Shown piece by piece: positions 7,577 through 10,426 of a stretch of DNA of 64,000 nt. The stretch lies in contig SBGD01000093.1 in NCBI GenBank assembly GCA_006226775.1, positions 1 through 64,000 on the forward strand, given 5' to 3'. Position 1 is the stretch's first letter; each line of letters begins with the position of its first letter. The notes beneath the pieces are model-generated. The model was not told the DNA's origin. It worked only from the letters and a program-made list of their open reading frames with translations, and did not search any database. The stretch comes from Paracoccaceae bacterium (GTDB taxonomy: Bacteria > Pseudomonadota > Alphaproteobacteria > Rhodobacterales > Rhodobacteraceae). Both the position numbers and the translations under genes were made by a program.

Positions 7577-7621
7577 CGAGTGGTGGGTCGAAAACCCACC
7601 CTGTGGACAGAGGCCCCCGTC

Positions 7622-7630
7622 GAGCGATCG
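7622..7630. repeat. Left copy of 9-bp target-site duplication GAGCGATCG
   Basis: Identical to 10375..10383, immediately outside the inverted repeats. Confidence 0.93.
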
Positions 7631-7661
7631 TGGCTCGTTCCGGGTTTTGGGACATAACTGC

Positions 7662-7700
7662 AACGGCTACCGAGAAAATTCTCGGTAGCCGTTTGATTTT
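7662..7700 (+). terminator. Hairpin with T-rich tail just inside left TIR
   Basis: Perfect 15-bp arms AACGGCTACCGAGAA-aa-TTCTCGGTAGCCGTT followed by tgatttt. Confidence 0.75.
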
Positions 7701-7867
7701 AAGGATATATTTTACCGGGTCGCTTACACGAGCTTCGGGACTTTTGTCCCGGCGCAACAGTAAGCAGAAAAATCGTTTTGGGATTTCGTCGCCAAGGAAA
7801 ATGGCCAACATCCCATTCGGTCCCGGAGGCCTTCTTGACAAATCAATACCGACAGATCGGAGATCGA

Positions 7868-10234
7868 ATGGTCAAGAAGCTCAAGCAGCTGAAGCTTTTT
7901 CAAGTCTACCCTGCCGTGCTGGCAGATTTCAACCTCAATACCTGCGGTGACCCGGACTGCGGCAACTTCGGCGTTGCGCCGGACTTCGCAATCCCTGAGT
8001 TCAAAGGAAAAAACGCTGCGCAACGCAAGCAGGCGGCCTCGGCGAGCATCCCGGCCCTGACGACCGGGCTCGGCTCCTACACCATGTCGAGCGACGATCA
8101 TCATCCGCGTATTTCGGAGGCCTTCGAATACGCCGGCGATCCGGTCGGCTGGGATGACGGCCGATCCATGGAGTGCGGTCATCAACGCGGCAACGGCGTT
8201 TGCGACATCAGCTTTTCGATCATGTCGAACGAGCACTTCCTGGAAGAATATTATCGACTGCTCTTTGCTGGCGGCTGCCTTGAAGGGCCGGTGTGCGGCG
8301 CGTGCGGCGCGCGGTATCTCGAGAACTCCGACGAGTTCATATTCAATGGCACGCACGGGAAGCTGGCACCAAATGGCAATCGCCGAAAGGCGAAACCATC
8401 GGGGTTTCGGATGATCCACCGTCCCTGCAAAGGCAAGCGTGGCGCGAGGATCTCCGTATCGCTGGATCACCAAGCACAGAAGGAGCTGCGCGATAACGTC
8501 CGCATCCTGAGATGCATCGTCAACGGCGACAGCATCACGACCATGCGCCGTGTTCTGGCTGACCCCGACACCGGGAAGCAGATCGGCGTGAGCCGCCTTT
8601 ACAGCCGCATCTTCTGGTTGGAGAAAACCTTGCTCGCCTTCGAGCGTGCGAAGCTGAAGGAATGGAAGCAGCGAGTGGAGGCGTCCGACCGCTTCAGCCA
8701 CATGCGGATCGCCCACGACGACGTCACGATCTCGGTCAACTGGGAAAGCCGCTTCGATCGACGGCTGACGCCCCTCCAGTTTTCGGTCTCCGCCGACATT
8801 CGGAGCGGATATGTCTTCCGGATCGACGCAAACTTCGACCCGAATGTCGATCCCGTGGAGTTCATCCAAGAGCACTATCTCGACGACACAGGCCAGCCCA
8901 CGAACCTCCGGCAACATTACTCCCAGAAATCGGGCGTCACCTTCACCGCACCCAAGATGCAGTTCCAGCGCCCGAGCGGGCGGCTCGATGAGGCCATGCT
9001 ATTCGCCAGCGCGGAAGGCCGCTGGAGGGTGTTCTCCGAGCGTGTGCAGAATGCATACGAAAAGACCGTGAATGCCGGCTTCGCCCTTCCCCCTGAGGCC
9101 CAGGAAAAGATCGCTGAAGCCGACGACAAGAGATATCAGCTGGACCAGATCCGGCAGGGGTATTTCGGCTTCCACGACACGGATCGCGACTTTCGGGGCA
9201 GCTTCAATGGGAGCGTTGTGAAGCCGACATACACCAAGGCGGCGCATCTTGCCTGCCTCCGGGATATGCTGCCCAAGGGCAAGATTACGTTGGTCGGTGA
9301 GCAGGAGGCGGCGATGGTGCGCGTCGTGCCACACGTATTCCGCGACATGATCAACGAAGACATGTTCGAGTGGTTCGTGATCTCCTTCGACAAAGAAGTC
9401 TCCGCACCCAAAAGCAAGGAGCGTATGGCCCGTTTCACTGAGGGGCTGGAGGCCTTCAAGGAAAGAGCGCGGGCAAAGCTCGGCGACGATATTTCGGATC
9501 GGGAACTCTTGGAGCACTATTGCACCAAGCGGATGTCAACAGCCTGCATCGAGGGACGAAATGGCACGAAATACTCGCATGCGATCCCGAACTTCCAGTC
9601 TCGCCAGTTCCCCCAGGTCTGGATAAAGACGCCGGCTCAGTATTTCGGGGAGACACAGAAAGTCGTGGGGTTTCCTGTCCTGCGAAAGAAGTATCGAGAC
9701 CCTTTGAAGAAGCTGGCTTTCGACCAGAAGGTCCATGACCCTGAACTCTGCGCAGCGCTGACGCGACGAGCCCTGAAAGCGACCATTCAGCCCGTATCGA
9801 CCTTCATGAGTTCCTTGCGCCATCGCACAAGCCCGTCGAAAAGGGCCGGCGGTAAGGGAGCGCGGACAGGTCCTGCATATATCAATGGAGCAGTCTTCAA
9901 TCCTGCCGTGTTGATGGCGTTTCTCAACATTTTTCGGATCTACTACAACTGGTTCGAGCCACGTCAATACAAGGGGCCGGGCGCGGCTGCCGGAAGCGAA
10001 TCTCCGGTCCCAGCAGGAATGTCCTCCATCCGTATCCCGGGCACCAAAGAGACGCTCGAGATCCCGAAAATGGCGACGACGACACCGGTCATGCTGACTC
10101 CGGCAATGCGGCTTGGGGCAGATCCGGAGAAATCGAACGGGCAACCTCGCAAGGCACCTGACCCGAGGCGCGTTCTCTATCGGCCTTGGCTCTATCACGG
10201 CACGCCGTTGTGGAGGAAGTTCGAGGACCGGTAG
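7868..10234 (+). CDS. Putative zinc-ribbon DDE-type transposase (~788 aa)
   Basis: CGDPDCGNFG and VCGACGARYL...HRPC Cys/His motifs, HTH-like region, acidic RNase-H-like blocks (SADIRSGYVFRIDANFDP; LVGEQEAAMVRVV), C-terminal NPAVLMAFLNIFRIYYNWFEPRQY; only ORF of the IS. ORF track uses an upstream TTG at 7778; ATG 7868 preferred. Confidence 0.8.
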   Translation: MVKKLKQLKLFQVYPAVLADFNLNTCGDPDCGNFGVAPDFAIPEFKGKNAAQRKQAASASIPALTTGLGSYTMSSDDHHPRISEAFEYAGDPVGWDDGRSMECGHQRGNGVCDISFSIMSNEHFLEEYYRLLFAGGCLEGPVCGACGARYLENSDEFIFNGTHGKLAPNGNRRKAKPSGFRMIHRPCKGKRGARISVSLDHQAQKELRDNVRILRCIVNGDSITTMRRVLADPDTGKQIGVSRLYSRIFWLEKTLLAFERAKLKEWKQRVEASDRFSHMRIAHDDVTISVNWESRFDRRLTPLQFSVSADIRSGYVFRIDANFDPNVDPVEFIQEHYLDDTGQPTNLRQHYSQKSGVTFTAPKMQFQRPSGRLDEAMLFASAEGRWRVFSERVQNAYEKTVNAGFALPPEAQEKIAEADDKRYQLDQIRQGYFGFHDTDRDFRGSFNGSVVKPTYTKAAHLACLRDMLPKGKITLVGEQEAAMVRVVPHVFRDMINEDMFEWFVISFDKEVSAPKSKERMARFTEGLEAFKERARAKLGDDISDRELLEHYCTKRMSTACIEGRNGTKYSHAIPNFQSRQFPQVWIKTPAQYFGETQKVVGFPVLRKKYRDPLKKLAFDQKVHDPELCAALTRRALKATIQPVSTFMSSLRHRTSPSKRAGGKGARTGPAYINGAVFNPAVLMAFLNIFRIYYNWFEPRQYKGPGAAAGSESPVPAGMSSIRIPGTKETLEIPKMATTTPVMLTPAMRLGADPEKSNGQPRKAPDPRRVLYRPWLYHGTPLWRKFEDR

Positions 10235-10317
10235 ACGGCCTATGAGTTGAACCTTCGCCATCCGGAAGATGTGAACAAGGTTGGGCTCAAGAGCGAGGCC
10301 GGGTCGCCGAAAAGTTG

Positions 10318-10348
10318 AGGGCTGGGAAACAGATCGTTTCCCAGCCCT
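10318..10348. repeat. Hairpin just inside right TIR
   Basis: Perfect 13-bp arms AGGGCTGGGAAAC-agatc-GTTTCCCAGCCCT. Confidence 0.8.
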
Positions 10349-10374
10349 CGTGTCCCATATTCCGGAACGAGCCA

Positions 10375-10383
10375 GAGCGATCG
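10375..10383. repeat. Right copy of 9-bp target-site duplication GAGCGATCG
   Basis: Identical to 7622..7630. Confidence 0.93.
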
Positions 10384-10426
10384 GCGGGGGTTTTTCTTTG
10401 GCGGGACGGTCGCGTGCTTTCGGCGA

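What the first reader, a model, noticed from the sequence alone, without database searches (positions are those of the whole stretch)
7614..10398. The IS sits in the tetraloop of the rplP transcription terminator
Joining 7614..7630 to 10384..10398 gives CCCCCGTCGA-GCGA-TCGGCGGGGG-TTTTTCTT: a 10-bp stem (one T-G wobble), a GNRA-type GCGA loop and a T-tract, i.e. a textbook intrinsic terminator 37 bp after rplP. The 9-bp duplicated target GA-GCGA-TCG is centred on that loop. This suggests the element recognises terminator hairpins or cruciforms, a target choice that avoids gene damage next to an essential operon. Targeting of palindromes or terminators is known for some other IS elements; whether it applies here needs more copies.
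Basis: partly seen in the sequence, partly recalled or inferred. Interest (0 to 1): 0.9.

Follow-up and report, generated by a model that had tools for sequence, protein, structure and literature searches.

The report
Transposons that land in terminator loops
A little-known group of bacterial jumping genes inserts into the loop of the hairpins that end genes, whatever their sequence, and brings in its own stop signals, so it can settle beside essential genes, often with anti-phage or metabolic cargo, apparently without harming them.

Summary
The 2,744-bp element (7631-10374; inverted repeats; 9-bp duplication GAGCGATCG) sits in the loop of the rplP intrinsic terminator. Three congeners show the same terminator intact and empty. 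I located relatives (family A, ~790 aa; sister family B, ~570 aa) in Rhodobacterales genomes and reconstructed 36 independent insertion sites. In 33 the target duplication is centred, within 2 nt, on a strong hairpin. The duplicated sequences share no motif. Of the hairpin targets in the first 32 sites, 27 of 29 carry terminator A/T tracts, against 13% of equally strong background hairpins, and 21 of 29 are bidirectional terminators. Each element end carries its own hairpin (about 47 nt from the left tip, about 41 nt from the right), usually with the tract of an inward-facing terminator; the left hairpin covaries. So the element seems to replace the terminator it splits. Many relatives carry cargo: type I restriction, CBASS, MmeI-type enzymes, mercury resistance, a DMSP-lyase operon. 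The transposase has no Pfam or NCBIfam match; family B has a DDE (RNase H) fold and a partial IS1-type zinc ribbon. How the hairpin is recognised (extruded DNA or stalled transcription complex) is unknown.

The parts
7163..7576 (+). rplP (ribosomal protein L16), the gene whose terminator is the target
   Evidence: Pfam PF00252 E=2e-53
7614..7630 (+). left half of the interrupted rplP intrinsic terminator (CCCCCGTCGA plus loop plus part of the right arm, including the left target duplication)
   Evidence: sequence; empty-site fold; intact terminator in congeners
7622..7630 (+). left 9-bp target-site duplication GAGCGATCG
7631..7654 (+). left terminal inverted repeat (TGGCTCGTTCCGG...)
   Evidence: shared by family A elements
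7662..7702 (+). left subterminal hairpin plus T-tract: inward-facing terminator, centre about 46 nt from the tip
   Evidence: terminator-like scan, DNA fold -16.7 kcal/mol z -7.7, fixed position in relatives, covariation
7868..10234 (+). transposase, 788 aa (frame open from TTG 7778, 818 aa); family A, no Pfam or NCBIfam match
   Evidence: model pLDDT 87.6; homologous to family B (hhalign E 1.7e-35)
10310..10349 (-). right subterminal hairpin with A-tract on its inner side: terminator on the minus strand, facing transcription from the right flank
10351..10374 (+). right terminal inverted repeat
10375..10383 (+). right 9-bp target-site duplication GAGCGATCG
10384..10398 (+). right arm remainder GCGGGGG and T-tract TTTTTCTT of the interrupted terminator

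Best explanation
The element belongs to a group of DDE-type transposons (family A here; the shorter sister family B is distantly IS1-like) that choose their target by structure. They insert with a 9-10 bp stagger placed symmetrically on the loop of intrinsic, mostly bidirectional, transcription terminators, whatever the stem sequence (shown by 36 reconstructed sites). Each element end carries a subterminal terminator-like hairpin facing inwards, so both flanking host genes should still be terminated after their shared terminator is split (anatomy shown, function inferred). This allows harmless settlement beside highly expressed essential genes and transport of cargo such as restriction, CBASS, mercury-resistance and DMSP genes (cargo shown, benefit inferred). 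The most likely recognition is binding of the palindrome as an extruded or single-stranded DNA hairpin by a transposase dimer, which would also explain the fixed hairpin in the element's own ends (inferred, about 50%).
For: Sites: 25 of 32 sites above the 99th percentile of 3,600 null positions, binomial p = 3e-44; the strongest hairpin within 20 nt lies within 2 nt of the duplication centre in 28 of 29; 4 of 4 sites resolved afterwards. Directly observed empty sites: rplP, three species; the L122 site, L127, L128, L132. No motif. Terminators, not any palindrome: (27/29 with A/T tract against 174/1336 background hairpins, p = 2e-21; both tracts 21/29 against 24/1336). Four resolved IS256-family insertions from alphaproteobacterial relatives show no hairpin. 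Element ends: left hairpin centre 47 nt, IQR 46.5-48, from the tip; T-tract after the left hairpin 23/32, A-tract before the right hairpin 27/32; 8 of 12 pairs with compensatory change. Fold: (family B best hit ISCth4 transposase E = 8e-4, then TnsB, Mu, piggyBac). Cargo. Housekeeping neighbours.
Against: Three of 36 sites do not fit: L082 has no hairpin (beside a phage integrase gene), L012 and L014 only weak ones. No transposition was observed. The preference for bidirectional terminators may reflect survival between convergent genes. End hairpins may serve only as terminators. The background hairpins include coding DNA. The IS256 control is small (4 sites).
Confidence: 0.85

Rival explanations
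1. Insertion is random and selection keeps copies lying between convergent genes, where terminators happen to be.
For: Sites are intergenic, mostly 20-65 nt after stop codons that face the site, beside essential genes.
Against: Selection cannot place the duplication within 2 nt of the hairpin centre: with uniform insertion in a 100-nt spacer the chance is about 4.5% per site, P = 4e-36 for 29/32. The four IS256-family controls do not do so.
Confidence: 0.04
2. The transposase follows the transcription complex (RNA polymerase stalled at the terminator, the RNA hairpin, or a termination factor) rather than DNA structure.
For: Targets are terminators and not equally strong other palindromes. Neighbours are typically highly expressed genes such as rplP, tsf, glnA, GAPDH and clpB.
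Against: Exact symmetry about the loop and absence of a fixed orientation relative to a single T-tract (window, L063 and L067 against L050 and L080) are more natural for a dyad in DNA. L019 is a hairpin without tracts.
Confidence: 0.35
3. Any strong palindrome is a target and terminators are simply the commonest.
For: Some targets lack good tracts (L019, L083).
Against: Only 13% (26% at the highest threshold) of equally strong hairpins nearby have a tract, against 27/29 (18/19) of targets. In the window the palindromic repeat array right behind the terminator (10430-10640) was not used.
Confidence: 0.1
4. A short linear motif such as CGATCG is recognised.
For: The window duplication contains CGATCG.
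Against: The duplications of the other sites are unrelated; information content inside the duplication is near zero in family A and low in family B.
Confidence: 0.01

Closest known systems
IS1 family (insertion sequences with Zn ribbon, HTH and DDE domain, 9-bp duplications)
   Same: 9-10 bp duplications; Zn-ribbon/HTH stretch of family B matches NCBIfam IS1 NF033558 (E 2.5e-10); some family B proteins are named IS1 family or transposase-like by their sources.
   Different: 570-790 aa, much longer than IS1 transposase (own knowledge: about 230 aa); score far below the IS1 cut-off; family A matches nothing; single long ORF; terminator-loop target; hairpins in both ends; kilobases of cargo.
Group IIC introns, which insert after intrinsic terminators (PMC3898094 and PMC8919778, citing Robart et al. 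2007)
   Same: Recognise the terminator hairpin; spare genes.
   Different: RNA retroelements inserting just after the stem; here a DNA transposon with duplications splits the loop itself.
REP-targeting IS elements such as IS1397, IS621, ISRm22, ISPpu9 (PMC1525189)
   Same: Insertion into palindromic intergenic DNA.
   Different: They recognise a conserved repeat sequence; here the stem sequences are unrelated and the targets are terminators.
Tn7 (attTn7 in the glmS terminator region; own knowledge)
   Same: Safe insertion in a terminator region with defence or other cargo.
   Different: Tn7 reads a sequence in glmS through TnsD; here one transposase-like gene and many different terminators.

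Membership tests
IS1 family | transposase scores above the family model | tested here: not met
   family A: no match up to E=1; family B: partial match, 40.6 bits against cut-off 100
IS1 family | 9-bp (8-10) target duplication with short inverted repeats | tested here: met
   8-10 bp duplications with inverted repeats at all 36 sites, mostly 9 bp in family A and 9-10 bp in family B
IS1 family | insA/insB frameshift expression | tested here: not met
   single uninterrupted ORF of 788-818 aa
DDE (RNase H fold) transposases | RNase H-like catalytic fold | tested here: met
   family B model against ISCth4 E = 8e-4, TnsB, Mu, piggyBac; family A best ISCth4 E = 0.011; A and B homologous
DDE (RNase H fold) transposases | D, D, E catalytic residues | tested here: inconclusive
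   family B: invariant D229, D362, E462; aligned in family A: D284, E478, E595, i.e. Glu at the second position; geometry not checked
Group IIC introns | group II ribozyme and reverse transcriptase | tested here: not met
   inverted repeats, duplications and no reverse transcriptase match in the only large ORF
REP-targeting IS elements | target is a repeated, sequence-conserved REP element | tested here: not met
   36 unrelated target sites; no two of the first 32 empty sites share five 12-mers

The most novel reading that the evidence does not exclude
One transposase recognises DNA hairpins as such, both in the element's own ends (fixed subterminal hairpins) and in host terminators: a sequence-independent, structure-guided DDE transposition system that swaps a host terminator for a pair of its own and thereby builds safe harbours for defence and metabolic cargo across Rhodobacterales.
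Probability: 0.35. Interest if true: 0.9.

Novelty: new variant of a known kind. Interest (0 to 1): 0.82.

Why it matters
I found no DDE transposon in the searchable literature that targets intrinsic-terminator loops irrespective of sequence. If recognition is by hairpin structure, it opens a direct test of how a transposase reads DNA shape or a termination complex. It explains how kilobase cargo (CBASS, type I restriction, mer, DMSP catabolism) can sit next to core genes such as GAPDH, aspartokinase or clpB without obvious cost, and it suggests a genome-insertion tool with built-in safe sites. It also gives a simple rule for finding such elements: a terminator split at its loop.

Tried and rejected
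Plasmids and viral contigs gave no relatives. Searches outside Rhodobacterales gave almost nothing; the two distant copies in G727 had no convincing ends. The automatic end search failed for elements with cargo until the right end was sought up to 14 kb away. IS256 as a control gave only 4 resolved insertions. A linear motif, GNRA dependence and generic palindrome targeting were tested and rejected. ORF-based gene context in GC-rich DNA was unreliable; only Pfam-supported neighbours are used. Literature searches found group IIC introns and REP-targeting IS, but no DDE transposon with this target; ISfinder was not available and subscription papers were not searched.

Full report
OBSERVATION. 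The described sequence is present at the stated coordinates. The element spans 7631-10374 (2,744 bp) with 24-bp inverted repeats, 21/24 complementary, and a perfect 9-bp duplication GAGCGATCG. Deleting the element and one duplication yields CCCCCGTCGA-GCGA-TCGGCGGGGG followed by TTTTTCTTT. It folds as described and begins 37 nt after the rplP stop. Three congeneric genomes keep this terminator unbroken at the same position, with the same stem plan and loops such as GAGA. The element is single-copy in its genome, so its targeting had to be judged from relatives.

THE PROTEIN. The 788-aa ORF has no Pfam or NCBIfam match but 121 homologues, nearly all unnamed. Whole-genome searches place family A in Rhodobacterales (24 of 397 and 25 of 395 genomes, and almost none of 296 drawn from the class). 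A distant sister family B (about 570 aa) emerged from the same searches; A and B are homologous by profile comparison (E 1.7e-35). B has a partial IS1-type zinc-ribbon/HTH match (E 2.5e-10, below the cut-off). Its predicted structure (pLDDT 86) best matches the DDE transposase ISCth4 (E 8e-4), then TnsB, piggyBac and Mu. The family A model (pLDDT 87.6) matches the same fold more weakly (E 0.011).

OTHER INSERTIONS. Ends were mapped by requiring inverted repeats together with an 8-10 bp duplication, with the right end sought up to 14 kb away because many elements carry cargo. This gave 36 sites: 15 of family A and 21 of family B. No two of the first 32 empty sites share flanking sequence. Examples (duplication in capitals): aaggccccggAGCGCCAACtccggggccttttg (L076), aaaatggccgccATAAATAGAcggccattttt (L029), aagggcgcccCATCGATGGGgcgcccttt (L096), aaaaaggcgcGGGTTTCCGCgcctttttt (L122), ggcctcGCTTCGGCGgggccattttttt (L062). 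In 29 of the first 32, and in all 4 resolved later, a strong hairpin (score at least 19) is centred on the duplication. 25 of 32 exceed the 99th percentile of 3,600 null positions (p = 3e-44), and the strongest hairpin within 20 nt lies within 2 nt of the duplication centre in 28 of 29 cases. The exceptions are L082 (no hairpin, beside a phage integrase gene) and L012 and L014 (weak or imperfect). Empty sites are also seen directly for L122: L127, L128 and L132 carry the intact terminator.

WHAT IS RECOGNISED. The duplications share no motif (2.69/9 mean identity against 2.46/9 shuffled). In 257 kb of flanks, hairpins of equal strength carry an A- or T-tract in only 13% of cases (174/1336), against 27 of 29 targets. 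Both tracts occur in 2% against 21 of 29. So terminators, preferentially bidirectional ones, are hit, not palindromes in general. Random insertion plus selection cannot centre the duplication on the loop (P = 4e-36 under a 100-nt spacer). The small IS256 control (4 insertions from alphaproteobacterial relatives of the window's genome) shows no such effect. Supported neighbours are core genes: rplP, tsf, glnA, sodium:alanine symporter, GAPDH, ClpB, PntB, aspartokinase, ETF-QO and a DHH/DHHA2 protein.

THE ELEMENT'S OWN HAIRPINS. Most elements have a hairpin 46-48 nt from the left tip and about 37-44 nt from the right tip (medians 47.0, IQR 46.5-48, and 41, IQR 37-43.5). Left hairpins are followed by a T-tract (23/32) and right hairpins are preceded by an A-tract (27/32), so both are built as terminators for transcription entering from outside. 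The tract criterion is met less often on the left in family B (9/17). Left hairpins of family A covary (8 of 12 pairs with compensatory changes, score 0.595 against 0.20 shuffled); right hairpins differ widely in sequence. In the window these are 7662-7702 and 10310-10349. The simplest reading is that the element replaces the bidirectional terminator it splits with one inward-facing terminator per side. A role in end recognition by the transposase is possible and not excluded.

CARGO. Elements range from 1.2 to 13.2 kb. Inside the long ones are type I restriction systems (L122; HsdR match in L125), CBASS with phospholipase (L052) or SAVED-HNH effector (L122), an MmeI-type IIG enzyme (L124), a GmrSD protein (L012), MerA and a MerR-type regulator (L076), and a DMSP-lyase-domain protein with a betaine/choline-type ABC transporter and acyl-CoA enzymes (L051). 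The window copy has no cargo.

MECHANISM. Shown: target class, loop centring, sequence independence, architecture of the ends, cargo. Inferred: DDE transposition by one transposase; restored termination; recognition of extruded or single-stranded hairpin DNA (about 50%) or of a stalled transcription complex (about 35%).

COMPARISON. Group IIC introns use terminator hairpins but insert after them (PMC3898094, PMC8919778). REP-targeting IS recognise conserved repeats (PMC1525189). IS1 shares duplication length and a zinc-ribbon stretch, but membership is not supported by score or ORF plan. No description of a DDE transposon with this target was found in the open literature searched; ISfinder could not be consulted.

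Noticed in passing
window 9299-9307 (E478, E480) and relatives: Where family B has the invariant catalytic-type Asp (FVMDxDxGL, D362), all 89 aligned family A proteins have Glu (LVGEQEA), suggesting a D-E-E instead of D-D-E triad.
   Followed up: partly
L122, L123, L124, L125, L052, L012, L029: Long elements carry anti-phage-type cargo: type I restriction, CBASS, MmeI-type IIG, GmrSD, T5orf172 proteins. The group may be an important carrier of defence genes in Rhodobacterales.
   Followed up: partly
L051 (13.2 kb element) and L055: L051 carries a DMSP-lyase-domain protein, AMP-binding, acyl-CoA and thiolase enzymes and a betaine/choline-type ABC transporter; a decayed element, L055, has the related transporter genes. 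Mobile DMSP catabolism inserted in a terminator.
   Followed up: partly
L076 (7.0 kb element, Tranquillimonas alkanivorans): Mercury(II) reductase MerA (above the NCBIfam cut-off) and a MerR-type regulator inside the element.
   Followed up: partly
window 7582-7600: A second hairpin (GGTGGGT-CGAAA-ACCCACC) without T-tract lies between the rplP stop and the terminator and is conserved in congeners.
   Followed up: no
window 10430-10640: An array of GC-rich palindromic repeats (CCCGGGTCAGGCCCGGGGATGACGG-like) directly behind the terminator, which the element did not use as target.
   Followed up: no
L082: The one clear exception without hairpin lies a few bases after a phage-integrase-family gene; it may use another attraction or be a secondary rearrangement.
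   Followed up: no
L120, L121 (genome G727, another alphaproteobacterial family): Two distant family B-like genes outside Rhodobacterales without recognisable ends.
   Followed up: partly
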